A stretch of 64,000 nucleotides of DNA from Heligmosomoides polygyrus polygyrus (lineage: Eukaryota; Nematoda; Chromadorea; Rhabditida; Heligmosomidae), in NCBI GenBank assembly GCA_947396885.1, contig OX377202.1, forward strand, positions 30,123,407 to 30,187,406, written 5' to 3'. Within the stretch, counting starts at the first letter, position 1. Every line of letters starts with the position of its first letter. A program made the position numbers and the translations under genes. A model generated the notes under the pieces. The model had not been told where the DNA came from and made no database searches. It saw only the letters and a list, made by a program, of their open reading frames with translations. Of this stretch, positions 13,935 to 64,000 are shown piece after piece.

Positions 13935-14186
13935 ATACCAGGTCCCTGGTTCGGATTTCCCGCCCAGGGCAACCAAGCCTTCCATCCCTCCGGGGTCGGT
14001 GAATTGGTACCAGACTTGTCTGGGAAGGATAAGCGCTGACTTTGTTCATCGGCTGGCCACCGCAAGTCATTGTATGGCCGAATACGCATTCATGTCGCCT
14101 CCACGACATCCCGTAGAAGTAGAATGCGCTGGCGCATCCCAGAAGGGACCGAGTAACGCCGTTCTTTATCCTTTTTATTTTATTAT

Positions 14187-31979: not shown

Positions 31980-32262
31980 ACGTCTTGTCGCAACTCGTAG
32001 AAGGCGCCGGTTGTCGCATTCACTTGCTACCAGGTTCTTGTTTTGGATTTCCCGTCCAGGCCAACTATCGCGCTTTATCCCTCAGCATTCGTTGAGTTAG
32101 TAGCAGACCTGTCTGGGAAGGAAATACCACTATCATGTTTATCGGCTGGCGAGTGCAAATCATTTATGTGCCAAGAAACAAATTCAAATCGCCTCCACTG
32201 CATCTCGTAGATGTGGCCATCCAAAAAGCGATTTAGTAACGCTCTTTTTATCCTTATTATGT
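31980..32262 (+). repeat. diverged SINE copy
   Basis: gctaccaggttcttgttttggatttcccg (B-box region), gtagcagacctgtctgggaagg and the final agtaacgctctttttatcc follow the SINE. It ends where the foldback at 32276 begins. Confidence 0.6.
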
Positions 32263-32521
32263 ATGTATGTACAACACCGGCCATATCTTTTCGTCTTTGG
32301 GCTGAAAAAGCGAAAAAACGCCTTTTCCGCCGCCTTTGTATAGCGCTCTTCAAATTAAGTCTAATGTAAAATGAACATATAATCGGGATCAGCGCCGAGC
32401 TATCTTCCCAATGAGCTTCAAGACGCACAGTGAGCACTTGAAAAGTAGTTCAGTGCCTAATCTCTGCGTGGCGGGGCTGATCCCTCCCCTTACAAGAGAT
32501 ATTTACACCCACAGGATGCTC

Positions 32522-37480: not shown

Positions 37481-37774
37481 ACTTGTTTTATTAAGTTTTC
37501 ATTAAATTTTTCAACTTATTTTCACTTTCTAATTCTATTTCTCTCAAATGCCTCTAGTTCTTTGTCTTTTCTTCTTCACTCTTTCTCATCTTTCTTCATC
37601 TGTTCTCTCTTCCATTTTCGTTTTCCTATCTCTTTTCTTTTACAGACAGATTTTAAAGAAACCTTAAAATATACTCCTCTTCTCCACTGGAGAGCCACGG
37701 GAGGAGTGTAACACAAAGGTTCGTCTGAAGGCAGTGGCGAAACGAACCTTTTCCTATGTTTTGTATTTTGTGAC

Positions 37775-44000: not shown

Positions 44001-44385
44001 GTGTGAAAGGCTCCACAATTCCAAACTTGGCTTTGGAACGCCATTCATATGATCGTTGAGCTATCCTCCAAAGTTTTCTACGCGGATCTCCTGGAGTTGA
44101 ACTGATCGGTACAATTATATCAGGGTAACGCAACATGATTAATATTGAGGGAAATAATGCGGCAAGAAAGTTGATGTAGCGATTCTGCTACTATCTACTG
44201 TTGTGTGCTTCATTGCCATGCGGCCAATCATCTTACGCCTTGTTCAAAACGAATCAACCACTTCGTCAGCTTCAATGCTTTGGATTGTCAACAACTACAT
44301 GAACCACAAGAGGGGAATGCGAGACTTTGAGAGCAATTTAAAAGGAGCCTGCCCTTTCTCTTCAGGAAAAGGCGCTAGTAGCAAG
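41075..44385. other. no recognisable gene
   Basis: Short frames only (for example 43257-43520 plus and 43885-44136 minus) with no recognised domain. A 19-bp tandem pair (tgcggaacaagaggag) lies at about 42113-42150. Confidence 0.35.
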
Positions 44386-44635
44386 CAATCAAGGCGAGAT
44401 GTTGGGGATGCACCGGCTGTCACGCGCACCCGATTCCAGGTTCTTGGTTCGAGTTCCCCGTTCAGGCCAACCCTGTCTTCCATTCCTCCATGGTGAATTG
44501 GTATTGGTACTAGACCTTAAAAGGGCCCTGGGAAAGATAAAACGCTGAATTGTTTACCGGCTCGCCACAGCAATTCTTTGAATAGATCATACATTCAAAT
44601 TGCCTTCACAATATTCATAAGTTGAATCTGTAGCT
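44386..44635 (+). repeat. diverged SINE copy
   Basis: cacccgattccaggttcttggttcgagttcccc keeps a good B box (ggttcgagttcc). Then accctgtcttccattcctcc and agataaaacgctgaattg. The tail is lost. Confidence 0.65.
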
Positions 44636-44698
44636 TATTCTATAAGAAATTGGCCTTTGTTTCTGCTTGACTAGCCTCTGTTTTTATTCTTTCATAAA

Positions 44699-44990
44699 GG
44701 ATAAGGATAAAGGACGGCGTTACTCAATCCGTTCTGGGATGCGCCAGCGCATTCTACTTCTACGGGATGTCGTGGAGGCGACATGAATGCGTATTTGGCC
44801 ATACAGTGACTTGTAGTGGCCAGCTGATGAACAATTCAGCGCTTTATCCTTCCCAGACAATTCTTGTGCCAATTCCCCTACCCCAGAGGGATGGAACGCT
44901 TGGTTGGCCTGGGCAGGAAATCTGAACCAGGAACCTGGTATCGGGTGCACGCGGCAGTCGCGCCTCCTCGGACTGCGCTACACGCGCCCC
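44699..44990 (-). repeat. SINE copy, nearly full length
   Basis: Starts ggataaggataaaggacggcg and ends cggactgcgctacacgcgcccc, minus orientation, with little divergence. A possible 9-bp target duplication is ttttattct (44682-44690) / ttttatact (44991-44999). It lies head-to-head with the plus copy 44386-44635. Confidence 0.8.
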
Positions 44991-45019
44991 TTTTATACTC
45001 ATTCTTCATTCTTTCATAA

Positions 45020-46335
45020 TTTATAAAATAAACCATTTCATTAACAACTAAGCAAATTTATGCTCCGGAATTCACCCGTAGATGGCTCATAAGCTTCAAA
45101 GGGCATATGAACAAGGGTCAGCTTTCCTCGGAAGAATATTGCTCGCGGGCTCATAAGAATTGAACTAACAAGATAGGCAACCAAGACGATCAAAGATGTC
45201 AGAAGGAAGAGTGCTTAAGGTTGCAGGGCTTGAATAAAATAAAAAGCGGTGACGAAATCGGCTATGAAAATTCCTATAATAAAGAAGTAAAGAACGCCTT
45301 TTTCCATTCAGTGGATGGAATTTGTAACTGTAACAGCGCTGAGCAGTTGTCCATATAGCTGGAAAAGTTCAGAACTAACTTGAATAGAAATGGTCACTTC
45401 TCTAGCTTTAGCTGTCGCCAGAGGTCAGTATTCAGTCTTCCTCCAAAACGTAATAGACTACTTCGTATAAAAAGCTTTTAAGAACAAGCCCTGTGCGAAG
45501 CCCAAAACGCACAAAAGCATCACGGCTTGACGAAGTTCGGAATAAAGCTATGAAAATTTCGCGAAAAACTCTCTGGACCTCGAGGGAGCCATATCGTCGA
45601 GTGATTCGTGTTTTAGTGAAAAATATCACCAACCTTTCGAGCTAGAATTTCGTTATGCACCGCGCAAGGTGTCAACACAGCTATGAAAGTAATGTTTATC
45701 TTGTTTAGAGCATTATGTTGAAATAATACCTGCCTTCTACTGCAAGCGTTGAATGTTTTCACCGGACCAGTACTAGAGTATGGTGCATCAGTTTATAATC
45801 CTTAACCTCGTAAGGCCAGCAATGAAATAGAAGGAGTTCAAATTAGTTCAGTTTCTCAAAAAGGATAATGATAAGTGATTTGAGATTTGGGTGAAACTGA
45901 CCTAATTCCATTAAGTAGCAATACAGATAAGTAGGAATACAGAAATCGTAATTTCGGACTATTCACCCTTGAGTTTAGAATAAAGAAAAATGGTGTATTT
46001 CTGTTTTAGAAAATTGCTACCAATGAAAGCAGAATCAAGCTCACAAACATTGGAATGTTGAGAGTGTATAATGTTCGTGGAGAAATAGTGATTTGCGATA
46101 CTGAGCAGCAGAAATTGTAGGCTCTTCTTTTTCGTATGCAGGATCCACACCTCATATGAGGAGCTTTGTGAAAGACAAAGTCTCCAAAGGAAATACGGAG
46201 CCTTTAGAAGGTTTTTAAATTTACAATGAAATGCATAAAAAATTCTCTATTCACTTCACATATGCATTAGTACATATAAATATAGGTCTTATGAGTGAGT
46301 TGGTGTAGACTTGAAAGAAATATTGAAACTATATC
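45020..46335. other. no recognisable feature
   Basis: AT-rich spacer between the SINE pair and the possible Tigger-like end. Confidence 0.35.
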
Positions 46336-46689
46336 CAGTTCTCTCTTCTTATAACGCGTTTGAAGGGACCGGGGAAAATCCGCGTTGCAACTGGAATCGC
46401 GTCCTAACCGGAACTTACTTTTTTAGACTGTTTTACGCGTAGATTTGATAAAAATCGCATACACTGGCTAGGTATGACTATAGTAGTAAAATATGTGACC
46501 ACGTGGAGAGTTTGAAGGCAAAAAACATCTTTAGATTATGAATGAGGTCCAGTCGCAGAGCAGTACTCTCCGCTAGATGCATAAGTATGTCAGATATGTG
46601 TGGGAATAACGAGTTCCAGAGAGAAGTTAGAAGTGATCAACAACAAAACTGTGTACCCTGAGGTTACAAAATCTTTTCCCGCCATCAAA

Positions 46690-46760
46690 ACTCTCGCACC
46701 AGGCGAATCTCGAACCAGCTCTCTACCTCCCAGGATGTTAGCCCATTACGCGTGCTGTTA
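46690..46760 (-). ncRNA. tRNA-like sequence (possible second SINE head)
   Basis: On the minus strand, tgggctaacatcctggg resembles an A box and ctggttcgagattcgcc contains a B box (GGTTCGAGATTC) about 30 nt later. The cloverleaf is not convincing, so this is probably a tRNA-derived repeat and not a tRNA gene. Confidence 0.3.
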
Positions 46761-47901
46761 AATCGTTTGCCGCATCCGCCACATCCTCGTTGACGACAAG
46801 TCGTCTCCTTTGACGGATTTCGCGCCCCATTTCGCCTGCCGCGCGCGCTCTGGGTCTCCTCCTTCCCCGGGCTATTTCTCTGGGTTTCCTGATTTTCAGG
46901 ATCTTCTCAGGAGTCAGCGCTTCCAACCTTCTACATGGGCTTGCGGTCATTCGAGCGGCTATGCGCGTCCGGGAAGGGTCGTTAGGAGATGCTTTCGTTC
47001 TGCGCGTGTTTTTTGGTCATGGTTTCTCCCGTCTTACTCCTTGCGCGTACCTTGGGGTTCTTATTGTGTTCATAATGTCTTGCGTTCGTTGTTCTCACGG
47101 ACTCCTTTGTGTTCATGCATGTTTTTAGTGTTGCAATCGATTCTGTCTTGCTCTCATGTTTTGTTATCTCTCACATATCTTGTTCGAAGGTTACTCTATG
47201 CATATATGTTCCGTTTATCTTGTTTAGTGCATTGCATATTGGGTAGCTTGCCATAGCGTTGTGTTTTTATCGTGTCACTTAGCATTTCCAGGGTCTTACA
47301 TTATATCGGTGCTATTCCTATTGGTCTCCTTTTGGTCTCTATTTGTATTTGCGTAGTATCATCATAGTCATCCATGTTTATCATCGCGTTATGCATGTTA
47401 TTGCCTTATCTTATCATAGTACATTGCCATCGATGCTTTTAATGTGTTGTTTCGTTCATGTGCGCGTGTTATTTATGTATTATTTAAGATAAAGGTTTAA
47501 TTACCCAAGTTCGAGGTGACTCCATCGCGTTCGGTCGCATCCATCTACTTATTCCGCGTGGCAGCATATTTCTGTTTATTCGTCTGATTGGAATCACTTC
47601 ACTCGCTGTAGCGAACTATCAGCACTCTTCAGCGATATCGGTTTGTTGCTTGTGATAAAGCAGCTCTATTGCTGTAATCCTGCCCGGAAAGCAGAGGGTG
47701 CAGATACAAGTCCTGCATGGCGCGAGAGTTTTGATGGCTGCAGAACATTCCGTAACAGTTTGTAGCATCTATACTACCTGATCTCGGCTTAGAACAAATG
47801 TGTAGGATATTGTTTTGTATAGTCTGAGTTTTAATCCACACCTGTCGTTTCTGATACAGGAAATTTACGGCAACTTCTAAACACTACCGGGGATCCTTAT
47901 A

Positions 47902-48283
47902 AAGTGTTCGAAATACTGCTGACTATGACACTTTCGTGTGTCACGCCTGCATGAAAAACTTCTACTGGTGCGACAACGAACGAGGAAATATAGAAATAGT
48001 TCTGATCGCAGGCGCGGTAAGCATCTTGCTCCTCTTCATTTTCTGTGTGGGACCGTAATTGTGATCTCAGAATTGATGTGACCGTGATCTTATACTGTGC
48101 TCGACATATTGCTGAATGTAAACATTTGTGGGCCGCACACATATGAAAAACGTCTACATGCATCTAATTCATTGCCGCGCAGATGCTGGTCGTGGCTACA
48201 AACAAGGCTATAGAAGGGTAGGTCTGATCGCAGAAGCTCTCAGCATCTTGCTCCTCTTCTTTTTCTGTGTGGGACCGATATGA
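47902..48283 (+). pseudogene. duplicated segment coding a cysteine motif and membrane helix
   Basis: Two direct copies (47902-48058 and 48088-48283). In frame, copy 1 reads TFVCHACMKNFYWCDNERGN then IVLIAGAVSILLLFIFCVGP and stop. Copy 2 reads HMKNVYMHLIHC..., then GLIAEALSILLLFFFCVGPI and stop. Both end in a hydrophobic helix, like the C-terminus of a type I membrane protein. No splice acceptor is evident and a stop precedes copy 1, so this is probably a gene relic. The family is unrecognised. Confidence 0.35.
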
Positions 48284-48892
48284 TATTGAGCCGGGGTCGC
48301 GTTATAACTGGAGTCATTTTGAACGCAGAGTTCCTCCCTAAACCGCGCTATAATAGGAGTAGCGTTGTATCCGACGCGTCTTAAGCGGAGTTGATTTGTA
48401 TTGGCGTAAAGGTAAGCTGGCCGGGGCCAGAGAAAATCTACTTTATAGTCACGAGTCGCGTAGAGTCGCGTCCTATCCGGAGGCGTTATAACGGGGAGGA
48501 CTGTATTGTAGATTATTAGAGGTAAGTGCAATTGTGACCTAACGTATAAAGGGATTTAGTGGAATAACTCAAACTACGCCATATTTCAAAGTAATAGAAT
48601 AATAAATGTGTACCACAGTGATAACACATATCGTAATGTCAAACCCGGTATCGTATAATAGGGCACGGTACGTAGATGCTGTACAAGGAAAGATGATCGA
48701 GAGCGATTGTTGCACTCTGCTGGCGTGTTAGTGAACTATTATATTTTCATTAGTAATTGTTCAAACCGCATTGTTTCAACTTCTGCTGGTTTCTCGATTT
48801 TGGGCTAAAACACTATTTAGATAAAAATAGTTTTAGGAACATTCATAAAACCTTTGTTATGTAATTATTTGGTAACTAAATGAACCTAAATT

Positions 48893-50165
48893 TACAGGGT
48901 GCGCCATAAATATGATCACTTTTTTCGCGCGTCATTTTTTGTATTTGTTTGTGAACGTTTTTATGTTTCCATTGTTTCTTCGGATTCTACGTGTCATCTT
49001 AACCGTATAGAGTGTTTTTTGCATCTCCACACTGCTTCTATCAGAAATGGTAAAGTCTTGTTGTCAAAGAGGCGCAATCTTGGATCCGAGAAGGGTAGGA
49101 CTTTCTGTTCCCAACATCGCTCGTCTGCTGAAGCTGCACAAGATGACAGTCTATCGCTGTGTGGAACGTAACTCTCTCGTTGATCGTTTCCGACCTGGCT
49201 GCCAGGTACCCGTAGCTACGAGCAGTCTTTGAAAAATCGTGAAAGAACAATTCAAGTGGAATCCAGGCCGCAGCATGAGAAAGATGGCATTCGAGCTCAA
49301 CTTATCGGCTACCACGATGAAGCGAGTTTGCTAAGAATGAACTTGGACTATACCCCTACAAGTTCCGTCAGCTGCACGGACAAACGCCTGCACAGATGGA
49401 AGGAAGAAGAAAAAAATGTCCAAGACTCCTCGAGCGGCACGACCACTGCACGACGCTCTTCACTGATAGGAAACTTTTCTCAATTGAACAGCATTTTGAC
49501 CGCCAAAACTAGCGCTTATTGGTTGAAAGTGGTGAGGATGCAAACACCGTTAACAGAAACTCTCACTGAGCTTCCCTGATTGTTTGGGCCGGAGTTTGCG
49601 CCATAGGACGGACACGATTCGTTTTCGTTGAAAAAGGAGCCAAGGTCAACACCAATGTCTACGTGAACGACATTGTGATGAAGGAACTGCTTCCCTAGGC
49701 TCAAGAACACCCTTTAAATACAAAATGGACCTTTCAACAGAACGGCGCACCCGCTCATAAGTCCAAGAAGACTCAGGAGTGGTGCGCAAGGAATCTTCCC
49801 AACTTCATCCCTGTCTCTGAATGGCCGACAAACTCGTAAGATTTGAGTGTTATGGATAACTGCGTTGATTCATTCTAGAGAGTGAAGCCTGCGCTAAAAG
49901 GCGCACTACGACTCGAGGATTGAAATCTTCACGGGAAAAAGCATGGAAGAAAATTTCGCAAGCAACCTTACGTGCCGCCGTTGAGTCCTACCCTAAGCGT
50001 CTGAAGGTTGTCATTCGTGCCAAGGAAGATCATATTAGATTATATCCATTTTCCGTGTTAACTAGATTGTTAGTAAATTGTTGAGGAAGTTTCGCTATTC
50101 CCTGACAAATTCCCCGTGAGTAATTCGCTTTTTATTGAGTGACCATATTTATGGCGCACCCTGTA
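48893..50165 (+). mobile_element. Tc1/mariner element, maT-like (DD37D), decayed
   Basis: Element 48895-50163 (1269 bp). The TIR cagggtgcgccataaatatg at the left is matched by catatttatggcgcaccctg at the right, and it is flanked by TA at 48893-48894 and 50164-50165. Length, TIR and TA duplication fit mariner elements. Confidence 0.88.
49047..50060 (+). pseudogene. mariner transposase, DD37D type, inactive
   Basis: Starts MVKSCCQRGAILDPRRVGLS with an HTH (SVPNIARLLKLHKMTVYRC). Several frameshifts follow. Then KNELGLYPYKFRQL, FTDRKLF (first catalytic Asp at 49465), LIVWAGVCAIGRTRFVF, FQQNGAPAH (second Asp replaced by Asn at 49741) and DLSVMDN (third Asp at 49855). The second-to-third spacing is 37 residues, which defines the DD37D (maT) group. 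Stops occur at the SPDL position (TAA at 49837) and elsewhere. Role when intact: cut-and-paste at TA sites. Confidence 0.82.
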
Positions 50166-51291
50166 TAAGATCTTCTTATTCAACTGATGAACCACTGTGC
50201 AGGTGTTGCAATAATTAAGGCTCATCTGAAGGAAGGTGGCGAAACAAACCAAGAAAGTTACTTTCATTTCTTCATGAGTCTACTTACACTTGAGCATATA
50301 ATTTACTGTTCCCTCCGACGTCGTCCAAGTCGCTCTATTGGCACGCCACTATCAGTGATAGCCATCGCAGCTCTCCTTTTCATGCGAGTAATGAGAATGT
50401 GGGGACAACTCAATCTTTTCGCTTCGGCGGCTTGAGATTCTTCAGACTCCAGAATGATGTACATATGTAACAATCTCATTAATATCTTGGCAAACCTTGG
50501 CAAACCTACCTGTTTACACACATTCACGCACAAGTTCAGGACATCAGAATTTCAGATAATCTGTCTGGTTGTCAGAGAAACACATCCAATATGAGTACTA
50601 CAGTTTGCTGCCCTTGTGACGATCCTCCACAAAGTTTATTGTAGTACTCAGTTTCCTTCTTTATGCTCTTAATAACCGGTACAGTATACCATGGGTTACT
50701 GTTATTCTTCTGACGACTGTTTAATAGTAAATCACTGCTTGCTGTTAGCAGATAGCCCAATTACGAAGTAATTCAACCTCATCAAGGCGGCATTATGACA
50801 TTATGGTTAGCCTCCAGCTTCTCTCTCCTTGGAACCTCGGCATGGTTAGTTATTGTAATTAACGTCAATAATGGGCCAACACGATTTTTGTATCTTTGTT
50901 TCGGCCTTTTAGTATATTACTGTTAGCATCACCTTAGAAGATAGAAGAATACTAGCTATGTTGTTAAGCACCCTCAAGAAGCTATAGGGCCCCACCGCTC
51001 GGTCATTCGAATTTATTCACTGCAATATTTCCGAAAGCCACAGTGCTTCCTTATGCCGAGATATGTTCAGATTGAAGCTCAGAAACTGTTAAAGCACATT
51101 ATACGCGACGAACAGACGAATTCTGAAGCGCGTCTGCCGAAGTAACCGGTAGGCTGGGCCCATTGTCGATATGGAGGGTACCTCCTCACATTCTCTGTGA
51201 AGTGTAAACGATTTGGTGATAGCCTGTAGCTGAATCTGTATTTGTTATTTGGTGAGACTACTGCAGCTAATCGAATTCCTCGAGTGGTAAC

Positions 51292-51325
<34 letters not shown>

Positions 51326-52264
51326 GAGAGAGCAATACAATTGGAAGCATTGTCTTATATATTAGCATTGGCATCGCTTTCTGAAGCTACAGGTGTGAGG
51401 TGCTGGATTGGTCGAACGCTAGATGAAGAATGAGAAAATATGTCCCTTCATTTTGAATAGTTTTCGAATATGATGTATGAACGTTCTGTATATGTCTGTG
51501 TCGTCCTGCCGATGGTCAAGTCCAAGGGTACATATGTGGTTAATAGAGTTTTTGAGATAAAGAGGTGACGGGTAAAGTGGCCATACTATGTTCAGCCGAG
51601 GGCTACATACTTCGGGGAAGACCCTTACGCATCCGGTGGCCAGTCGGTTGAGGTCACCGTTCACCCCGTGAAAGATGTGTCAACTGACCGACAAATATAA
51701 TTTTCGGTGGCTTGATTCATACGACATCGCTCCACAGACTGCCATCTGGGCTCTAAAGTGCCGTTCCTTGCATAAATATTTTTTGTAGGACACAAGGAAG
51801 CTGAATAAGAAGGAGCGGAGTCGGACGTTGTTCTGCTTTTCATTTCTTTTTCGACGCAGTTGGATTCATTCCAGCCACTGATTCCATATGTCGTATATTT
51901 CAAGAGACAGCTTCATCATTATTTTTGTAATCGAGACTGCAATTGCAGGAAATGTTCCTCCATATGGCATAGACTTGGTGTGCGCCATATAAAAGTAATA
52001 GGTGTCGGCCGCACTTAATAATTTCGTCGTGCACAAAAGCGGAAACAATACCATTCCTGATGCGAGGATGTTGCCCTGGGCACTCCCTGTTCCGCCAGAA
52101 GATTTCCTTGAACCGCTCCATTATCAAGATTTTCTTCTTTCTAGGTCCTTTCGATGGGTAAGTTCAAAGAACAAGTTCACCTTTGGTTTCACCTCCATCG
52201 ATCCACATTTACCAAAATCGCAAATTTACCTTCAAGCTGAGATCATCAAAATCATTGTCATCGC
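50166..52264. other. no recognisable gene
   Basis: Apart from the GA microsatellite, only short frames without motifs. Presumed 3' intergenic DNA beyond nlp-11. Confidence 0.35.
51292..51332. repeat. GA microsatellite
   Basis: About 41 bp of GA repeats with one interruption. Confidence 0.9.
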
Positions 52265-52299
52265 CATCATCGTCGTCGGCATGCAGCCGACGACGATGA
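52265..52299. repeat. hairpin: 15-bp perfect arms, 5-nt loop
   Basis: atcatcgtcgtcggc / gccgacgacgatgat around atgca. It lies about 265 bp beyond the nlp-11 stop codon in the transcript direction. Confidence 0.8.
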
Positions 52300-52369
52300 T
52301 TAGGGAGGATACAGACACAACACTGTGATATAACACCACGCAACGTACACTGCTCAACAATAGTACACA

Positions 52370-52375
52370 TTTAAT
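52370..52375 (-). promoter_or_regulatory. candidate poly(A) signal for nlp-11
   Basis: ATTAAA on the minus strand about 190 nt after the nlp-11 stop codon. This is a common variant signal and a plausible distance. It is not confirmed, as other AT-rich hexamers could serve. Confidence 0.3.
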
Positions 52376-52399
52376 CTAAGTTGACATACATCGAGACAC

Positions 52400-52421
52400 G
52401 CACACAGACAGACAGACAGAC
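52400..52421. repeat. CAGA microsatellite
   Basis: acagacagacagacagacc, in the presumed 3' flank of nlp-11. Confidence 0.7.
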
Positions 52422-52563
52422 CGCCAGATCAATCGATATCGATTTGTTCTGCATAGTGTTATTGATTGTTGTTGACATACACGCGCACGCCACCCACTCC
52501 CTTGTTCAAATACTGGTATATCGCATAGTTCGCCTGCACTCAACCACCCCACGGTGATGATGA

Positions 52564-52680
52564 TCACTTTCTTCCGGCTCGTTCCAAGTAGTTGCTCAGT
52601 TCGACGGCGTTTTGGAGATCTTGCGATGGCGACAGGGCGGCTGCGCGCTTCTTGCCAGCGTCGAAGAGTCGGTGGTACAT
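52564..52680 (-). CDS. nlp-11: nlp-11 exon 3 (second and third peptides, stop)
   Basis: Thirty-eight codons plus TGA after an ATTTCAG acceptor. The first codons complete the second peptide (MYHRLFDA-GKKR). The third peptide runs AAALSPSQDLQNAVELSNY to LERA, followed by GRK and the stop. The join QMQ|MYHRLFDA matches the continuous C. elegans peptide, so exon 2 and exon 3 belong together despite 6.7 kb between them. Confidence 0.88.
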   Translation of the reverse strand: MYHRLFDAGKKRAAALSPSQDLQNAVELSNYLERAGRK

Positions 52681-55600
52681 CTGAAATGGAAGGAAATGAA
52701 GGATGAAGCGAGGAGAACATAGGAGGGAAAGTGATAAAGCCAGTAGGATGTATATTATCCATCCGTTTCATTTCTACAAACCTTGGTGGTTGGTCACATT
52801 TTCTTCTCTTAGAGTAATAGGAGTCCGGGGAGGGGATTAACTCTTTGAATTGCATAGCCTTTTGCTTAATCAATAGGCTTTCAAGACTAGAAAACTTGTG
52901 TCAAGTAATACCTTCTGTCTTCTTGTTAATCTACGAATTGCTCGAGTAGGCAGGTAACCTTCTCGTTGGTATATGTCCGGTGCCAGAATTGTCCAGTGAA
53001 TTTTCCTCACTCGAGGAAGGTAAAGCGATCACATCATTCCTTCAGGAATTTCACAAAAAGACTGCGACAAACGCGTTGAAGGGATCCCTCATTTTTCGAC
53101 GTCCATCGGAATGAATCGGTTTCGACCGTCATCCAACTAAAGTCAGCAAAGCATTAGGAGTGCCAGTGCGGCCCACCTAATGCTCGACGAGTTGTCCCAT
53201 GCACAACCGCATCTCCTCCAACGGATTTCAGTGTTCCGGAAGCATTTTCCCATATGTGCGAGTCGAGTGGTTCCGAGCATCGTCCTTGGTTCGATGTGTA
53301 GCGTGCAATCAAGCTTTCTTACGACTCCGGCTTCCAAGGTGTAGTTGTATAACAGTTTTCAGTTTTTTTGTTCAGTTAGCTGTATTATCCTTTTTTCCAG
53401 TGCCGAGCATCTTCTGGCATTCTCACTTTCAGATCGGAAGCCAACGTCGTCCACTCTTCTCCCTCAAATAAATAACTGCAGAAGTGCAGTCGAATTTCTC
53501 TGCCTTCTCAAACGCTGTTGACGATTAGGATTGGGAGCAGCGGCCACGACCGCCCATAACATCAAGAAATCATACATATCTCTAAAATCCATTTACGAAA
53601 TTGTTGACGAAATCTATGTTGCAGCTCTGGCAACCCCTTCTCTGCTCTACTATGCCACTCACTAGCCAATCAACTACGCGTTTGTTAATACATATCGGCT
53701 TTCTTCATTAAGAAGCAATTGGATACACTGCTGCAGACATTTTCGGTGGATGGCAAATATGGAGATTGTGAACACCACTCTGTTGGAGGAAGAATATCTC
53801 TGCAATCACTACAAGCTAAGAAGCTTCAAGCTGAGAATAGTGTAACGCTAGCGATGAATCGAAATATGGAAAAAAATACCAAATTTTCATAATCGCATTC
53901 GAATTAATAGAACCACGCCTACAGATGAGTATCACGGATAAAGGACAAAATTCGCCGGTGAGTCTTCAATGGCTATCAATCCCTCCATAGGATGCACTAC
54001 GCATTCTAAATTCGCCGAGATACTATTGAGAGAATTTCAAAACATGTTTAGATAATGTAATGAATTTCGGTGGCCAATCGAGGTGCAGGTCGCTGCGCTA
54101 TCCTTCTTGAAAAAGCAGCATTCACCTTCTTAAGAGAATTTGAAAGTCTGACTACGTGTTTGCAACGCCGACTTTTATTCGGGGTTTTGTGAGATCCGAT
54201 TCCTCCTGCGCCACTGGCCCAAGTGTTTGAACCTAAAATTGCCGATAAAAGGAATCGCGATGAAATTTTAAAAATCAGTTACCTTATTGTTTCGACAAGC
54301 GGTTCGCACTTTCCACACGACTAAGAGATTAAGGAATTGCCTAGTGGCTTTATTTTGTTGTTTTTCAGAGATCACCTTAGTATGGTGCAAAAGCTATCCA
54401 AAGTGCGCTCGAGCGCCGTCGTATTGTCTTCGTTTAGTTGTATGTTTTAATAGCCAAAGCTTTACCCTAACCCCGTAGCTGCTGGAAGATCTTTTGAGAT
54501 AGGAGGATCTTCCATATTCTTTAATCTTCCATAGTCGGTAGCTGAAGAATATTGAGACGTATCAAGCAATCTCACAGGAGCTATTTTTAGAGTAGAGCGT
54601 CTTTCTTTTTGAATACCTTGTTCTAACAATCAGTAAAAGCCAAGAAAAAACACGGGATGAAAGTGGAGTTTCACTGGCTGTACTATGTCGCACAAAAGGT
54701 TTCTAACGTTTTATTGACTGAAATAATGCCTAAGGCTGGGTTGGTTCCTTTATGTAGAGAAGAGTTTCACATCTGAACAGTCAGAAGACATACAAGATGT
54801 TGATATTTTCAGCGTTATGTCGCCAACCGTCGTCAGTTCTAGGCCTTCTTGCAGCTTGGACTGTTCGAGACTTCCTTGAACTTCTGGGCTTTCTGCTCTC
54901 AGAAGCCTCGGTTCTCAGGCTTTTGAGTCCTCCAGCGTGCCGTCTTGGTCGGACCGCGACTAGTAGAATCCTTCGGCAATTTTTTGCTTCTTCTCTTCAT
55001 TGAGTTCCATTTATCGACTCCTTTTCACTTGCTTTCAGTTGGTGTCGGAAAAATCGCCGAGGAGTTCTACTGGCTGAAGGAGATAGAAAGCTTGAGAACC
55101 GAAGTTTCTGAGAGCAGAAAGGCCCAAGTTCAAGAAAGTTTTGAACAGCCCAGGCTATACAAGATGTATTTCAAACGCTGAAGAGTTTAAACCACTTTTC
55201 GCGAAAACCTGTATGGCAAAGGTCATGGAGATTTGTGACTCGAATCTCAGCAGAGCCATACCGGAATTTTATCGGGATTGCTAGCTATATGAGGAAGGGA
55301 AAACCTGAAGGCTCCGCGCTGAATTATCGATAGTGAGCACTTTGAACAGTAAACAGCCTTAAAATGATGGAAAGCCCGGTTAGATTGTAAAATCGTCCAT
55401 AGGAACCGAACCTGTTGAATTTGGAATATAAAACAATGTCTTGATTTTTCATTTCAAATAATAGTTCACAGTTGATTGTATTTTTTGACATAATTTAACG
55501 ATTCACAAAGGCATTTACAAGAACAGCTCATAAAGCGCGAAACACGTGCAACAATATCAAAGGTTTTTTGAAGGCTCTAAACATGGGCTGCCCTCCTTGT

Positions 55601-58600
55601 GCCATTGCAAAGCTTCTAAATCACTTTCAAAGGATCCTTTTTGGTGATCCACTGCCGGTAGATTTCAAAAAAAAAATGCAGCAGGCACACTGTACATTGG
55701 AGGTGAGAATGCTATGCTATAGGAAAACTAAGGCCAAGCAATGATAAACTACTACAAATGTACCTTCCTCCTGTAAATTAAGGGTTTGCGGCAACATTAA
55801 ATATTACAAAACAACATCAACCTGGTAACTCACGTACTAAAACTGCAGGATTTAGAATTTAAAGTGTTATCCGATTCTGTGTAATCTGCACGGGTCTCTT
55901 ACATATATATATATTTTTGGAGAAAGCCTGCAGAGGAAAAATTTCGCCTTAGAAGAAGGGTATCAAAATTATATTAGCACTATAAATATCACTATTAAAG
56001 TTATAATTATTAATACATTTCGACAGTTCGTGAGTTCTAACTGTACAATTATTTAAGAGTAAAGATACGTACTCCTGCCTTTCATTGATAGAGATATTCT
56101 AAATGGCTCTTATAGTAAATAAAGTGGTCAAACGTAAATGAGGTTATGGTGTTTTGAAACTAAGAGACGGAAACTTCGGATACTTTCGGTCCAATCGAGT
56201 GCCAAGATTAGGGGTACGTTTAACTTCGGTATTCTCTGCAATGAAGTATGGTTTAAGACACGAGGTAAGCAATAGACAAATACATAAACAGGTAAGTTTC
56301 TGGGAATGCATCACTTTTACAGTTTTGATACAAAAGCCACTAAATAAATAAATAAATAAGTAAGTAAATAAATAAATAAATAAATATCTCGTCTCCAACC
56401 TGCGATGCAGTGACCTCAATGATCGCCATACTTTATAAATGCTACGCGCACAGCGTTCTGGGGCAGCATGCGTATAAAGAGATAAAGTCCTCAAGTATCA
56501 TCTCAATTCCGTAGGATCTGCTTGGTACGAGAAGGTGTCAAAGTCCTTCTGACAGTGCGAATAAGAACATAAATTGTAGCAAACCGACTTTCAGTTTTGA
56601 TGAAAAATTCATACTATCTACATTATACTTTCCATGCAACTAAGCCTTTACCGGCGTGAACCATGTCATAAAGCAGCCATAGGAAAACACCCACGCTCGT
56701 TCTATCTGTTTCCGAAAACAAATAAAGCATTGGCGAATTCGAAAAGGCCAATTGCAAAAATTTCGATGAAAAATTCATACTACTCCCACGAACATAGGCC
56801 AACATCATGTCACTTCTGCATGGCCAAGCATCATCAAAAATGACTACGGTCCAGGATAGAAAGAACGTTGAAGACTTTAGAATTTATTAGAAATTCATAG
56901 CTCTAAGTGAGTGTTACTAGAGTCTAGAGGAGTGAGAGTTTTGAACCAAATTCTTAAGGGAAACGCAACCTTTGCAGACGCTACATACCTTGGGTGTTGA
57001 AAATCAAAGACTAAGCTAAACAAACCTTTAACTGTTAGATTTCTAGAAGACTATTCATTTTACTGTGTGGTAATAATGTGAACCAATAACGAAAAGCCAT
57101 AGCGCATTCTCCTTCAGGAACGATTTTGTCATTTTCTGCTCAACAGATGGCGATATTGCATATACATAGTTCTTCTCTCTGTAGTCGTTTGATTGTCGTC
57201 ACACTAAAACTGGATGAACTGCAGAGAAAGTGCTTCTGCAATGGCTAACGTAAGGTGCGTGGCGCAACCCAGGTGCCGACCATTAAAACAGCCCTCCACT
57301 TGGGCCGATCGATGCAGCACCACGCGATATTTCAAAGGAAGAGTTTCTTCCTTAATGCCCATCGCCAGACGTACTTGGCGTCATGCAATTATTGGTCGTG
57401 TCTGAAGAAAAATCCTCATTAATTCCCACTTTTGCAAGCAGCAGAACAAATTGCCGAGTTCTGTCAAACAATTCCGCAGGGTACGGAATGTTATTTGAGG
57501 GATAAGAGCTGTCATTTCTGGAAGGAATGTCTGCATTTCTGAGACCATGTCGTCTAGACGCATGTCTCAATGATCTCTATCCAAAGACAGAATGCGGCTA
57601 CCAACACTTCCAGCAGGACCTTCCTTAGCACTTATGCTGGTATGCATACAGCACTACAAGAAATCAGGGTTTGCAACGCACCAAACTCTGTGACGAAGCA
57701 CTGCAGTTCTGCTTTTCCCTTTAACCATTAAATGAATTGCTTAGCGAGCGCGGCTTCCCCTTCACGAAGCACAAGATGGTAACCAAGATGCTATTCTACA
57801 GCTTACAACAGATGCTATAGAAAAAAAGATATCTTTCGGTGTCAGTCAATCCCCTTTTGCTCCACGAACCTTGTATCCTTCAGCAGGATAACGTGGAGGC
57901 GATCCTAATGAGCAAATGGCCCACACAACGACTTGCACGATTTGTGGTGCCCAAAAGAGTCGGAGCCTTATCCCTCCACAAGTCGGTGTTCTCCAGAGGC
58001 AATTCTTTCGCCCACATAGAAAGCTTTAGAAGGCGTAGTTGGTCAGCAGAGCACTCAAACCAGGAATTTGGAGTGCACGCGACAGCTGGCGCCTCCCCAC
58101 TGCGCTCCACGCCCCAGAGCTTCAAATCAACATTTATTCGAAGCAGAGTGGCGCCTTCTAATGTTCTTCTTGAGGAAGAGACCCAGTAAGAGTAACAAAC
58201 CGGACATTAAGTTAAGCTTTGGTCAACCTGGAGTCAGTAATCCAATAGTTTTCCTGAGAAAAGTTACAACGCACTGCCTCATTAACATCATTAGCCTTTT
58301 AAAATTTTAGCCCTAATTTTTTTGTTGACCTCATAATAGCATTTAAACAACCGTTCCAAATCGACAGAGGAAATAGGCCAACATTTGTCGATTCCTTCAT
58401 AAGAGCTTACGCGACTTAGAACACAGCACTGCTGATCGCGATGACGACTCGGAAAAAATTGTCGTCTACAAAAATTGGTCCTATGCAGCATTTAACGGGA
58501 AATTATTGGTGCGTAGGAGCGCATGTTCAACTGAGTTGTGCCACATCCTATAATTACATGCTGCAAGGAGTGATTCAGAAGTCGCATAAAAGGCCATTAA

Positions 58601-59759
58601 TATAAAAAGGCCAAAAAGGTTAAATATTAGCATAAATTACTATCTTTGTGAGATGCGCCACGAATTCTACTTCTGCGGGACAAGGTCGGGACAATTTTAG
58701 TGACAAATCTAGGGACACAATTTTAGTTTAATGGCATTCGCACGTAAGCAGCTTTGCTGACGTAAATTGACGAAATTCAAAGACTCAAAATTCCGCCATT
58801 TTTCCCTCACGTTTGTGAGTTATGCGCTGTTATTTTAATCTTTTAGTTCTAGGAAAACTTGCTACTCTGCTTGCACTGGAGACGCTCCCATTTAGTTTTA
58901 ATTTTTTCAACTTCTGGTGTTGCTTTTGATTGTTGTTTCTTTCTTCCCTTTCTTTGTCATAAAAAAAATAAAAAATAAATAAATAGATAAACTAAATCCC
59001 AGTAGATGGACAAATCAGTGTTTGCCTTTCCAAGCAAATTCTGATACCATTCAATAGCCCCAAATATATGGTCTTTGCTGACCTGATGTGAACCGAACTG
59101 TATTGTGCGCTGCCTCCTTTTTCTTTTCTTTTTTTCAAACAAAAGATTTCTTTCTAAACAACATTTCTAGAACAGCATTTTTCTCATAACTACTTTGAAG
59201 ATCGGTTGTTTAATTCATGAGATGAATGTTGGATAATACAGCGCCACCATGTTGAACGGTGACCATTTCCGTACGGCTCTCTTGTTTAAAACAGCGGAGT
59301 TCGAAACGAGGAAACGGAGATTCCGCTGATGGTTAAAATTCAACCCCTCTTATATGAGAAAGCTGCTTCACATGGTACCCATGCACAAAACTCCGACTGA
59401 CCTGCATCTGTCGCCCAACGTCATCGGCTACGCTGACTTGACGCTTGCCGATGTCCATCAGAGTGCGCATGTTGCCGACGTCTTCTTCGACGTCGAACGA
59501 CGGAGAAATGTGCCGTTTCAGACTCAGTGGCGACCGCTTGAACGCTGATGAAGCTCCCTGAAATTGGGTCGATTCCGAAGAATCTAGAGAAAAAGGGCTT
59601 CTTTGTCGGTCTCACATCATATCCATAGATTCCCATCATAAGAGGATGCAGTTCGCTTTCCAATCGTACGGCAGGACTCAGTTGTCGCTTTGCGCGCACC
59701 GAATTCGCACCGACCGAGCACACGACGAGCGCCAACACAGCGATCTGAGCAAGCACCAT
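52564..59759 (-). CDS. nlp-11: nlp-11-type neuropeptide precursor (three exons)
   Basis: This is a secreted neuropeptide preproprotein, spliced as complement(join(52564..52680, 59402..59557, 59616..59759)), 138 residues. Seen: a hydrophobic N-terminus (MVLAQIAVLALVVCSVGA), several dibasic sites, and three peptide blocks each ending in an alpha-amidation glycine plus basic residues: GNMRTLMDI-GKR, QMQMYHRLFDA-GKKR and LSNYLERA-GRK followed by the stop. All three junctions are phase 0 with GT/AG sites. Known: C. elegans NLP-11 (from memory) has the same three peptides in the same order, with HISPS starts and NMRNLLDI, MYNRLIDA and LERA ends. Inferred: cleavage by a kex2/PC2-type convertase, carboxypeptidase trimming and amidation in neuroendocrine vesicles. 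Gene identity is strong. The exact start and absence of further 5' exons are not proven. Confidence 0.9.
53040..53345 (-). pseudogene. decayed RTE fragment in the nlp-11 intron
   Basis: ccacctaatgctcgacgagt and gtggttccgagcatcgtcct parallel the minus-strand RTE copy at 30985-31110. It encodes ...RTMLGTTRL... and IRWA in broken frames. Confidence 0.55.
53935..54125 (-). repeat. degenerate SINE relic
   Basis: ggataaaggac, gatgcactacgcattcta, cggtggccaatcgagg and gctgcgctatccttctt in SINE order, minus strand. Confidence 0.45.
54850..55165. repeat. inverted duplication within the nlp-11 intron
   Basis: The arm ttgaacttctgggctttctg/ctctcagaagcctcggttctc (about 54850-54988) recurs inverted at 55056-55165. 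The right arm has an open frame (EEFYWLKEIESLRTEVSESR) after a tttcag, suggesting duplicated gene or transposon coding sequence. Source unknown. Confidence 0.55.
56338..56387. repeat. TAAA microsatellite
   Basis: Tandem taaa/taag units. Confidence 0.9.
57880..58115 (-). repeat. diverged SINE copy
   Basis: gtggaggcgatcctaatgagc, gcccacacaacgacttgcacg, ccacaagtcggtgttct and gcgcctccccactgcgctccacg follow the SINE on the minus strand. Confidence 0.6.
58648..58695 (-). repeat. SINE fragment (3' end)
   Basis: gtgagatgcgccacgaattctacttctgcgggac matches the SINE 3' region. Confidence 0.55.
58998..59110 (-). repeat. SINE relic (middle)
   Basis: gatggacaaatcagtgtttgcctttccaagcaaattctgataccattca follows the SINE centre. 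Confidence 0.45.
59402..59557 (-). CDS. nlp-11: nlp-11 exon 2 (first amidated peptide)
   Basis: Fifty-two codons after a TTTCAG acceptor. It encodes AFKR and LSLKR processing sites, then a peptide starting HISPSFDVEEDVGNM and ending LMDI-GKR, then the start of the second peptide (QVSVADDVGRQMQ). The donor GTCAGT is at 59397-59401 and downstream. The HISPS...GNMR.L.DIGKR signature is the clearest evidence for nlp-11. Confidence 0.9.
59616..59759 (-). CDS. nlp-11: nlp-11 exon 1 (signal peptide)
   Basis: Forty-eight codons from ATG at 59759. The first ~18 residues are hydrophobic (LAQIAVLALVVCSVGA) and fit a secretory signal peptide. A KR site follows at residues 24-25 and the exon ends ...MMGIYGYD. 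The donor GTGAGA sits at 59615. Read through without splicing, the frame soon diverges from the peptide-coding frame of exon 2, which supports the 58-bp intron 59558-59615. Confidence 0.85.
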
Positions 59760-60079
59760 GATCTGGAACAGACTTCATCTTGTGAGTTCCTCAGGTCGGA
59801 TCGGAGAATCACACGGACGGTTGCGGAACAAGAAGCGAACAGAGCGCGAGAAGCCCTTCTTATTGGGGACGAGTCAATGGTAGAAAAGAGAAAAGGAGTA
59901 GAAACCAGAGTGTGAATTAAAGAGTCGCGTCCAATCACAAATTTTCAGACAAACAATTTTACAAATGCTGAAATAGAGGTGGAGTTTGAAACCAGATAGA
60001 GTGAAATGTTGAGCTGGCAAAGAAATGTCTACAGCAGTGCGACAAATATCTCGTATATATTTAATAGCACGTATGTAAC

Positions 60080-60350
60080 CAGGGCGCATGTTGCGCGGTC
60101 GGAGAAAGTGCCACTGTCGCGTGCACCCAGATTCCTAGTTCGGATTTCCCGTCTAGGCCTTAAGCCCCTCATCCCTCTGTGGTCAGCGAATTGGTACATA
60201 CTCGACTGGGGAGGATAAAGCGCTTACTTGTTCATCGGCTTGCCCCGCAAGGCAATGTATGGACAAATACGTAATTCAAATCGCCTACACGATATCCCGT
60301 AGTAGTAGAATGCGTGGTGCATCCTAACAGGGATTCATTAACTCAGTCCT
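60080..60350 (+). repeat. diverged SINE copy
   Basis: gggcgcatgttgcgcggtcgg head, cctagttcggatttcccg B-box region, and a ggattcattaactcagtcctg end. It lies about 0.3 kb upstream of nlp-11 exon 1. Confidence 0.7.
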
Positions 60351-60375
60351 GCTTCTTATATCTTTTATGTCTCCG

Positions 60376-60560
60376 ATCACCGCATGTAGCGCAGTTGGAG
60401 TAAGTGCGTGGCTGGCGTGCACCCCAATTTAAGGTAAGGTTCAAGCTTCGCCCAACCACCTAAGCCATTACTCCCATTGAGACAATGAATAGGTACAAGG
60501 TTAACGTGGATGGGTTAAAGCACTACAGGTCCTTCGTCTGGCTTTAACAAGTCATTGTAC
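60376..60560 (+). repeat. diverged SINE copy
   Basis: gcatgtagcgcagttggagt has a perfect A box (tagcgcagttgg), then ggtaaggttcaagcttcgccc. The body is degraded. It ends at a solo mariner-like tacagggtggcccatgac. Confidence 0.6.
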
Positions 60561-61812
60561 AGGGTGGCCCATGACTACAACTGCAACAGAATTTGGCGGC
60601 CTTGTAAAGAAGCGCTTGTCACTTATCTCGGACCCTACAGCTTTTACATAGGTAATCCTTAGCACCACTATTATCGCGACAGCAGCTTCTCCCACTAGGG
60701 GTTAGTGGGCTCTCATCTAAAACGATTGAATGTCTGTTCCTGGCCCGCATTGGAGCACTCTCATTTCGACGGGGATAAATTTCTGAAGATTAGTCGGTTA
60801 GGATTCAGTATATCGTATAGCACACTGTAGGGTCTTCTTCAAAGTTAAAAGTCCGAGCGAAACCGAGCTGCAGCAGAAGAACGCTATTAGCTTCTCGATG
60901 ATATACAACGTAGCAACCAGCTAGAATAAATTCAATATTTAACCATCGTGCAGGACACTCGTGCAAAAGGAATGCAGTATTTTGTTTTATTGGTTTTAAC
61001 ACAATTTTTCAAAAAATAACTGAGACTTTTTCACACGGTATTATTCACTATTAGAACGCCAATAATATGCGTTTTCAAAATATGTATATGAAAATTCAAG
61101 TCGCTCATTAAAAAATAATTTCACATACATATTTAGAGAAAGCGTATAGTACGCTTTCAACATTGTGTAATGCCTTATGAAAAAATCACAGTTTATTCAA
61201 AAATAGTGTTGAAACCAATAAAACAAAAGACCAGAATTTCTTTTGCACCAACAGAATAGAAAAGTCAGAATAGCATAGCGTCTGAGCCAACTTCTTAAAA
61301 ACACGATGTGCATAGGAGATTGGCTGCGCACACCTTATTTACGTAAACCTTGACAATTTTAAGCCCCTTATTGGCGGGTCTGAGGACTTTTATGTTTACC
61401 TTGATTGAGCCAGCGGCTGAGATTGTAGTAGAAACACACTTGGTTCACCATTTTTTTATCTTCTCCGAGTTTTGTATAAAGCTGCTGATCTATGCCTTTT
61501 CAATTGTTGTGGCGGAGTTCTTGGAGAAGTGAAAAAACAGGAAGTGTCCAACGCTTTGGAAGGAATTCCGCCCTGCCTCACTCGACGTTTTCAGCCACTC
61601 TCCCACACCTTCACCATTAAAAGCGGCGAACGTGCGCTGCCTTTAGTCGTCAGACTTAAGGAAATTAGCGTGGAAAGCGAGGGTAAACGTGTTCTTTTCC
61701 GCAACATGCTTACCCTATACTCACTGTGTACCTAATGGCCAAAGAGTTTCTAATTGCGAATGTGGTATTCTTAGGGGTTGCTTTTTTTCTTAGGGGTTAA
61801 CTTTTACCACAT
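60561..61812. other. no recognisable gene
   Basis: An 87-codon frame (61472-61735) is open but has no recognised motif or splice context. Confidence 0.3.
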
Positions 61813-61932
61813 AAAGGATAGATGATAAAGCTTCTCAATCTCTTTTTGAAGGAGCCATGCTTTCTACTTCTACGGGATGCAGTGGAGTCAATCCGAATTC
61901 ATATTTGGTCTCCAGAATGACTTGCACTTTTA
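61813..61932 (-). repeat. SINE relic (3' part)
   Basis: aaggatagatgataaagc, gagccatgctttctacttctacggg and ggtctccagaatgacttgc. Confidence 0.5.
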
Positions 61933-62269
61933 GGCACGTTAAGGAATGGAGACGTTGCTCGCTTCTTAACAAGCAAAAATTACGGAACAATGAGAGTAGG
62001 TGATTAGTCATCCAAAATATCTCGTACGACATGTCGATATGGACTAGAGACCATAAAAGAACATCGTCTCGACGTGTCAGGAAATCACTCCAAGCATTGA
62101 AAAATTATGGAATGTGCCCCGACGGATTATCCGAGGAAAGCCACACTTTATTTAATTGCATGCTGAGCTGAGGGCAAGCCGTGGAATAGCCACGCTTGTC
62201 GCCACTACAGGCAGGTGGGACTTGTTACGGAAAGTCGCTCAATAGAGACGAAAAGGGCATAGGATATGG

Positions 62270-62478
62270 GATAGAGGGATAAATGATAAACGATAAATGA
62301 TAAAGGGAGGCGTTACTCAATCCTTTTTGAAATGCGCCACGTATTCTATTCTACGAGATGTCGTTTAAATTGGGCCATGCAATGGCTTTCTGCTGTCAGC
62401 CGATGAACAAGTCAGCACTTTATTATCCTTCCCAGACAAGACTGGTACCAATTAACCGACCCCGGAGGAATACGATTC
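62270..62478 (-). repeat. SINE copy with expanded tail
   Basis: agggataaatgataaacgataaatgataaaggg is an extended variant of the TTTATCC-type tail. The body continues to accaattaaccgaccccggagg, where the copy is truncated by the next one. Confidence 0.65.
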
Positions 62479-62481
62479 TAG

Positions 62482-62750
62482 GGTATAAACGATAAGGGAT
62501 AAAGGAAGCGTTAGTCAATTCCTTTGCTCGATGCACCATGCATTCTACTTCGACAGGTTATCGTGGATGCGCCTATAAAATGTAGCCTACAAAATGAGTT
62601 GCCGTGGCAGGCTGCAAAAATGCAATGTGTTTTCGCTTCCAGACAAGTCTGGTACATTGTTATTAGTGCCGGAGGAACGGAAAGCTTTGTTGGCCTGAGC
62701 AGGATCCGAACAAAGAATCTGAAATCGGAGCGCGTGCACCATCCGTAGTC
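62482..62750 (-). repeat. SINE copy, diverged
   Basis: gataagggataaaggaagcg, atgcaccatgcattctacttcg, cttccagacaagtctggtac and ggcctgagcaggatccgaac, minus orientation. It directly abuts the previous copy. Confidence 0.65.
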
Positions 62751-63576
62751 AAAATGCTACCAAAATCAGAATGGTCTGTACGTGCGTGAAAACAAGGTAC
62801 ATCTCTATTATCCAATAGGAAGTGAGTAGAGTGATCTGGGCTCTGCTAGTAACTACTGAACCAGATCTGCAAAGAAAAAATAATCTCAATATAATCTCAA
62901 TTAACGTCAGGAAAGTAGAGAAGAGAAGGGTTTGTTGGCTCGACATCATACATGACCGAGGCCAGCCCCAATGCAAAATGTCCACGATGCAAAAGCCTCA
63001 AGTCGATGATCAATGGGCGTCATGATACGTAGTGGTTGTAACCCCAATCTTGCAACGCCGTTTACACCAAAAATTAAAGGAAGGAACGCCGGATGTGATT
63101 CTCCCACAAAGAGAAACTTCCACCAATCCAACGAGGATATCAAGTTTCCATCTCCCCAAACATGAAAGGTGATACTCAAGTTCGTTATACAGAGGGCATG
63201 TCAACGAGCATGAACACGTGGAGATATGACATGCCGCTCCTTCGGTGAACTTTGTGTTGCTAGTTCATTCTTGAGGATGCCCCATCTTTGCCACTGCTAG
63301 GATTTCTATACTTCAGTAATGCGCCAGAACACCTTAAATGATAAGATTATACTTCTCTGAGCTGAAAACACTTCTCGAACAAAAACTTGCAAAGGGCCTT
63401 CAAAGGCTGCAAAGCGTGAGATCTTGAACCAGTCAAACCGAAGAACGAGCAAGAGCGTCAGTATTTCACATGGAGCAAAACATGTATCTCAGGACGTAAG
63501 TTTACGCTCGCTCGAATCAGAGCAGAAACCGTAAAACCAAGAACGGCTTCACTACGGCGCATTTGTCAAGCACTGT

Positions 63577-63636
63577 GGTCTATAGTAAGCCATACCCAGT
63601 GTCGAACCTCCGCTGGAGTATGGCTTACTATAGACC
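63577..63636. repeat. hairpin: 19-bp perfect arms
   Basis: ggtctatagtaagccatac (63577-63595) and its exact reverse complement (63618-63636). The stem can extend into the loop through ccagtg/cgctgg with one bulged base. Confidence 0.8.
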
Positions 63637-64000
63637 GCTATTTGCTCCAGAATTGAATATGTAGACGAATAGCACGGAAGGAAAGTGCAACTTCTACACA
63701 GTGTTACTCCTGTGAAGTGCCTCTGTTGGACTTTCTACCATTCTTAATTATTGCGCACGAACATCGAGAAGCTTCTCGGCGTGAGGAGCACAACTGCTGC
63801 TGGGGACCTACTCTACAAAATTAGTTAGCGTACATAGGTCGTTTGAGCGGATCAGAAAAAGGGATAAAGGAGCGAAAAGTTTACGTGAACTCTGACACTC
63901 AATACACGCATAAGCAAAGCCAATTAATGAAGCTCTTCCAATGCTACGATGTCTTCTCGAACTACAGTAGGGATATTGAAAATAGCATAGCCCTGTGCTC

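What the first reader, a model, noticed from the sequence alone, without database searches (positions are those of the whole stretch)
52564..59759. nlp-11-type neuropeptide gene reassembled from three separated exons
None of the exons stands out as a gene alone. Spliced at GT/AG sites, all phase 0, they give a signal peptide and three amidated peptides in the same order as C. elegans NLP-11. Peptide ends NMRTLMDI-GKR, MYHRLFDA-GKKR and LERA-GRK are conserved in position and processing signal.
Basis: partly seen in the sequence, partly recalled or inferred. Interest (0 to 1): 0.85.

Follow-up and report, generated by a model that had tools for sequence, protein, structure and literature searches.

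The report
Nematode nlp-11 neuropeptide gene
Three scattered DNA pieces join into a nematode gene for a known neuropeptide precursor (NLP-11); the gene is ordinary, but it encodes one extra well-conserved peptide stretch that the laboratory worm C. elegans seems to have lost.

Summary
On the minus strand, exons 59759-59616, 59557-59402 and 52680-52564 join at GT/AG sites, all in phase 0, into a 138-aa precursor. Searched against the whole window, seven relatives (six strongylids, C. elegans) find exons 2 and 3 every time and exon 1 in six of seven; their other listed matches have E of 0.19 or worse. Six strongylid proteins match over 100% of its length at 78-86% identity, one already named NLP-11. 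C. elegans NLP-11 aligns end to end with its three amidated peptides in order. It is an nlp-11 ortholog: a new member of a known kind. Two additions. First, 7 of 20 database models break exactly at the exon 2/3 junction, so the last exon is often missed. Second, the precursor holds a fourth, non-amidated dibasic-flanked peptide (QLSPAVRLESELHPLMMGIYG...), as conserved in strongylids as amidated peptide 1, shared with Plectus and absent near C. elegans. Transcription, processing and paralogs in the same genome could not be tested.

The parts
59616..59759 (-). Exon 1: start codon, hydrophobic signal sequence, KR site, start of the conserved non-amidated peptide QLSPAVRLESELHPLMMGIYGYD
   Evidence: Translation and splice sites; hydropathy and dibasic map; tblastn by P0001-P0006
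59558..59615 (-). Intron 1, 58 nt, GT..AG, phase 0
   Evidence: six full-length strongylid proteins align across it
59402..59557 (-). Exon 2: end of the N-terminal peptide, SPLSL spacer, amidated peptide 1 HISPSFDVEEDVGNMRTLMDI-GKR, first part of peptide 2 (QVSVADDVGRQMQ)
   Evidence: GKR columns invariant in the 18 rows of A3
52681..59401 (-). Intron 2, 6721 nt, GT..AG, phase 0; no Pfam match in six frames at E 0.1
   Evidence: 7 of 20 database models leave the family alignment at this junction
52564..52680 (-). Exon 3: rest of peptide 2 (MYHRLFDA-GKKR), peptide 3 (AAALSPSQDLQNAVELSNYLERA-GRK), TGA stop
59760..59778 (-). Leader: out-of-frame ATG at 59778 overlapping the start; TTCCAG (59768-59763) three bases before the start codon is a candidate trans-splice acceptor; in-frame TGA 18 nt upstream of the start codon
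   Evidence: for ATG and TTCCAG; TGA read; use as acceptor is inference
52370..52375 (-). ATTAAA, candidate polyadenylation signal 188 nt after the stop codon
   Evidence: motif only

Best explanation
This is the nlp-11 gene of a strongylid nematode. It encodes a secreted precursor: signal peptide (about residues 1-18), then units cut at dibasic sites by an EGL-3-type prohormone convertase, trimmed by an EGL-21-type carboxypeptidase and, where a glycine precedes the basic pair, amidated. Predicted products are HISPSFDVEEDVGNMRTLMDI-amide, QVSVADDVGRQMQMYHRLFDA-amide and AAALSPSQDLQNAVELSNYLERA-amide, plus a conserved non-amidated N-terminal peptide starting QLSPAVRLESELHPLMMGIYG. The peptides most likely act as neuronal signals through G-protein-coupled receptors. 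Shown here: gene structure, homology and the presence of processing sites. Inferred: transcription, cleavage, amidation, receptor use and function.
For: Exact splice structure and open joined frame. All 20 phmmer hits (E up to 1, 35 candidates) are better than 1e-20, and P0001-P0006 cover 100%. The profile search reaches C. elegans 'Neuropeptide-like peptide 11' (E 1.5e-37) and 'Protein CBR-NLP-11'. tblastn of ten relatives against the whole window picks out the exons and lists nothing else better than E 0.19. Same-species comparison: one Necator americanus model (P0009) loses exon 3 after QMQ, the other (P0003) has it. Four database models that read on past QMQ continue with V, as expected if a GT donor sits there in phase 0 (P0008, P0010, P0012, P0020). 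In C. elegans, neuronal nlp-11 is tied to longevity, and egl-3 and egl-21 are treated as neuropeptide-processing genes (PMC9203275, abstract and passages).
Against: No transcript, peptide or expression evidence for this genome. No Pfam model covers the family (only match for the precursor 15.8 bits against a cut-off of 27). An out-of-frame upstream ATG could reduce translation if the leader is not trimmed. A second nlp-11 copy in the genome was not excluded. The protein tree leaves the window row unresolved.
Confidence: 0.96

Rival explanations
1. A pseudogene or untranscribed duplicate of nlp-11 left behind among retroelements.
For: The window holds several retroelement frames, and a paralog search of the same genome could not be run.
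Against: No frameshift or stop in any exon, canonical sites at both introns; conservation among relatives is highest in the peptide units and the window keeps them. A retrocopy would lack the introns.
Confidence: 0.03
2. Chance assembly of exon-like pieces by a reader looking for NLP-11.
For: Exon 3 is only 117 nt and lies 6.7 kb away.
Against: Ten proteins not derived from the window find the pieces; among the eight best rows listed for each, nothing outside the three exons is better than E 0.19. The weakest queries are less clear: Diploscapter P0019 reaches exon 1 only at E 0.06, and Plectus P0149 reaches exon 3 at 9e-4.
Confidence: 0.005
3. The precursor belongs to the pigment-dispersing-hormone family, as the UniRef name of the A. 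cantonensis relative P0017 says.
For: Name of P0017.
Against: P0017 has no Pfam match at E 10; it is an exon 1 + exon 3 product with exon 2 left out. None of the three Pfam families matched by any of the 21 members of A1 is a hormone family.
Confidence: 0.01

Closest known systems
C. elegans NLP-11 (P0143, 'Neuropeptide-like peptide 11')
   Same: Three amidated peptides in the same order, with amidation signals in the same columns.
   Different: The N-terminal QLSPA peptide is absent: the region reads ATVPVANEEDYLAALYGFEAPGSQFKGAPLQSKR, and residues 26-46 are 19% identical.
Strongylid NLP-11 models: P0001 A. duodenale, P0002 H. contortus, P0003 N. americanus, P0004 D. viviparus (named NLP-11 by its source), P0005 C. 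nassatus, P0006 P. tenuis
   Same: Full length, 78-86% identity, including the N-terminal peptide.
   Different: The window has AAALSPS where five of the six have AALSPS, and IYGYDG where the six have MYGF plus varied residues.
Plectus sambesii protein P0149
   Same: Begins with KRQLSPAVALENELHPL after the signal region and carries repeated units, most ending in G plus a basic residue or pair.
   Different: Six units instead of four; aligned amidated peptides 38-40% identical against 62% for the N-terminal core, 48% for the whole N-terminal peptide.

Membership tests
NLP-11 neuropeptide precursor | Full-length homology to C. elegans NLP-11 and annotated NLP-11 proteins | tested here: met
NLP-11 neuropeptide precursor | Three amidated peptides ending ...NMRxLxDI-GKR, ...MYxRLxDA-GKK, ...LERA-GR in this order | tested here: met
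   window and C. elegans rows of alignment A3
NLP-11 neuropeptide precursor | N-terminal secretion signal | tested here: met
   Hydrophobic stretch with Kyte-Doolittle peak 3.0 over residues 6-15 and a V-x-A site at 16-18 (and reading); no signal-peptide program was available
NLP-11 neuropeptide precursor | Same exon-intron layout as C. elegans nlp-11 | tested here: inconclusive
   Window has three coding exons. A figure legend speaks of 'the three exons' of C. elegans nlp-11 (PMC9203275); its boundaries were not seen
NLP-11 neuropeptide precursor | Expression, cleavage and amidation in vivo | not testable with these tools
   no RNA or peptide data held
NLP-11 neuropeptide precursor | Orthology rather than paralogy within this genome | not tested
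   own-genome search did not complete; the protein tree has no starred branch around the window row
Pigment dispersing hormone | Match to a pigment-dispersing-hormone profile in Pfam | tested here: not met
   none listed at E 10

The most novel reading that the evidence does not exclude
The most deeply conserved peptide of the NLP-11 precursor is not one of the three amidated peptides but a non-amidated N-terminal peptide, QLSPAVRLExELHPLMMGMYG. It was present in the common ancestor of Plectus and the strongylids, is under strong constraint in strongylid parasites, and was lost in the C. elegans group. It would then be a bioactive signal that work in C. elegans could not have shown.
Probability: 0.45. 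Interest if true: 0.45.

Novelty: new member of a known kind. Interest (0 to 1): 0.25.

Why it matters
As a gene it is ordinary: a strongylid copy of a known neuropeptide gene. It is useful in two ways. It shows that automatic gene models of this family often lose the last exon (7 of 20), and with it one whole amidated peptide and the amidated end of another. It also points to a constrained peptide stretch missing from C. elegans, which peptide libraries built on C. elegans alone would leave out.

Tried and rejected
Pfam for the precursor: only sub-threshold matches. PDB profile search: best E 1.3, chance. Rfam (gathering scores) and ARAGORN on the window: nothing. Pfam in six frames of the large intron: nothing at E 0.1. 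Six frames of 59780-64000 and 47600-52560: three sub-threshold matches, the best HTH_38 at E 1.3e-4, 22 bits against a cut-off of 27; 42700-47600: nothing at E 0.05. So no neighbouring host gene was identified and no synteny test was possible; the rest of the window was not scanned this way. Tree: window row unresolved (3 of 16 inner branches starred).

Internal-repeat test of the N-terminal peptide against the amidated units (39 pairs over five proteins, 17 of them with the N-terminal peptide; number of 500 shuffles reaching the observed score): window 38, 436, 87; Plectus 2, 60, 4, 15, 76; C. auriculariae 137, 232, 0; Diploscapter 31, 280, 31; C. bovis 12, 234, 70. With this many pairs some low counts are expected, so common origin by repetition is not shown for the window protein.

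In the conservation count I used 13 rows: the window and 12 of the 16 other non-Caenorhabditis, non-Diploscapter rows of A1 judged strongylid with exons 1 and 2 intact; P0013, P0017 and P0020 were dropped because the model lacks or garbles the 5' end or exon 2, and P0018 (unnamed, Diploscapter-like) was left out. P0003 and P0009 are one species and P0010 and P0014 are one species, so rows are not independent.

Literature: peptide strings were searched (0 papers; 9 papers listed, none on nematodes by title); receptor search (1 paper, already seen).

Full report
Check of the observation. Exon 1 is 59759-59616, exon 2 is 59557-59402 and exon 3 is 52680-52564. The introns are 58 and 6721 nt, start with GTGAGA and GTCAGT, and both end in TTTCAG. 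All three exon lengths are multiples of three (144, 156, 117). The joined frame gives 138 aa with no internal stop. The coordinates in the finding are exact.

More than chance. C. elegans NLP-11 (P0143) hits exon 2 at E 3e-17 and exon 3 at E 3e-10; it does not detect exon 1; the next best match is E 0.79. Each of the six strongylid proteins P0001-P0006 hits all three exons (worst of these E 1.5e-14), with no other listed match better than E 0.19. Of the other three queries, C. auriculariae P0011 hits all three; Diploscapter P0019 hits exons 2 and 3 and reaches exon 1 only at E 0.06; Plectus P0149 hits all three more weakly (9e-9 to 9e-4).

What it is. phmmer with the joined protein gave 20 proteins with E up to 1 among 35 candidates, all better than 1e-20. 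P0001-P0006 cover 100% of the query at 78-86% identity; P0004 is named 'Neuropeptide-like peptide 11 family protein' by its source. A profile search (29 proteins) adds C. elegans 'Neuropeptide-like peptide 11' and 'Protein CBR-NLP-11'. The pairwise alignment to C. elegans NLP-11 has 63 of 138 identical positions. In the 18-row alignment A3 the G, K and R of the first amidation site, the G and first K of the second, and the A and G of the third are invariant. It is an nlp-11 ortholog, with the reserve that a paralog in the same genome was not sought successfully.

Support for the junctions from database models. Of the 20 models, 13 carry exon 3 and 7 (P0007, P0008, P0009, P0010, P0012, P0014, P0020) leave the alignment directly after QMQ, the last codons of exon 2. 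Four of the seven (P0008, P0010, P0012, P0020) continue with V, as reading on through a phase-0 GT donor would give; this is inference from protein letters, as their DNA was not seen. For Necator americanus the two models differ: P0009 loses exon 3, P0003 has it. P0017 (A. cantonensis) joins exon 1 straight to exon 3; whether that is an annotation slip or real in-frame skipping of exon 2 cannot be told here. The simplest reading is that a short last exon is often missed by gene prediction; that a large intron is the cause is known only for this window, not for the other species.

The fourth peptide. Over 13 rows including the window (selection in Tried and rejected) the mean pairwise difference per site is 0.068 for its core (residues 26-46, 16 of 21 sites invariant), 0.089 for amidated peptide 1 (residues 64-84, 16 of 21 invariant), 0.392 for the signal sequence and 0.345 for the tail 47-56. 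The core does not differ from peptide 1 (14108 of 20000 site permutations as extreme) but does from the signal sequence (5 of 20000) and from residues 47-63 (65 of 20000). In the seven full-length strongylid rows the core has 92% mean pairwise identity, against 89, 87 and 83% for the three amidated units with their basic sites; the whole N-terminal peptide, tail included, has 81%.

Where the fourth peptide occurs. The pattern KR[QE]LSP[AS] was counted over the 29 proteins. The script listed 18; one of these (P0016) is a later unit and was taken out by eye, and P0017, missed by the script because no KR follows closely, was put in by eye from its sequence, so 18 of 29 stands. The 11 without it are P0013 and P0020 (5' end garbled or missing in the model), P0016 (C. 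angaria) and P0141-P0148: seven rows from five named Caenorhabditis species and one unnamed row (P0141). Against Plectus the core is 62% identical while the aligned amidated units are 38-40%; against C. elegans it is 19%. C. bovis and C. auriculariae still have it, so loss within Caenorhabditis is the simplest reading; the relationships among these worms are recalled, not tested. It has no glycine before the KR, so no amide is expected. Against it as a separate signal: it could be a folding or sorting segment of the precursor, the Plectus alignment has more units than the window and is partly arbitrary, and likeness to the amidated units is not significant within the window protein.

How it likely works. 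The signal sequence peaks at hydropathy 3.0; dibasic sites start at 24, 55, 62, 86, 110, 111 and 137. Cleavage, trimming and amidation by the usual nematode enzymes are inferred from established knowledge. In C. elegans, nlp-11 is expressed in neurons and intestine, and its loss reduces the longevity caused by the lipl-4 transgene, with neuronal expression responsible (PMC9203275, abstract and passages). Its expression differs in many neuron classes between Caenorhabditis species (PMC7617994, passages). In a parasitic nematode a homologue of nlp-11 was among eight neuropeptide genes downregulated in ivermectin-exposed samples (PMC9232149, one passage). PMC8764417 (passages and two sections) leaves nlp-11 out of its H. 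contortus expression figure as unannotated, which fits hard-to-predict exons but does not show the cause. No function in the worm of this window was tested.

5' and 3' ends. An ATG at 59778 opens a 53-aa frame overlapping the start, out of frame; TTCCAG lies three bases before the start codon, and an in-frame TGA lies 18 nt before it (read). The H. contortus model carries Q-V-M where the window reads Q-I-M, so the Q codon at that spot may be kept. Trimming of the leader there by trans-splicing would remove the upstream ATG; this is a proposal. ATTAAA lies 188 nt after the stop.

Limits. The species is not identified: NLP-11 and retroelement proteins point to a strongylid without an exact match. 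The own-genome search did not complete, so paralogs are open. No RNA or peptide evidence was available.

Noticed in passing
1468-4353 (+) and 17542-20748 (-): Two long non-LTR retroelement frames (962 and 1069 aa stop to stop), inverted to each other and 92% identical over about 3.1 kb (940-4076 against 20658-17521). The first has reverse-transcriptase and a sub-threshold endonuclease match; proteins like the second occur in Ancylostoma and Haemonchus.
   Followed up: partly
37712-40045 (+) and 12560-13741 (+): Two more reverse-transcriptase frames (Pfam RVT_1, E 3e-34 and 9e-21); 30719-31437 and 39328-40060 are a 92% inverted pair.
   Followed up: partly
copies near 4087-4387, 10535-10775, 11848-12132, 13935-14178, 29310-29594, 31999-32265, 44694-44989, 60082-60373, 62286-62471 and 62485-62728: A dispersed repeat family of up to about 300 bases in both orientations, 66-95% alike among the 60 longest self-matches seen, SINE-like in size; one copy ends 323 bases upstream of the nlp-11 start codon.
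   Followed up: no
about 49070-49170 (+): Sub-threshold helix-turn-helix match (HTH_38, E 1.3e-4, 22 bits against a cut-off of 27), perhaps a decayed transposase.
   Followed up: no
54797-55181: By eye, two similar stretches in opposite orientation inside intron 2, perhaps a small inverted-repeat element; not among the 60 longest self-matches.
   Followed up: no
60961-61248: Self-complementary stretch of about 290 bases, 72% alike to its own reverse complement.
   Followed up: no
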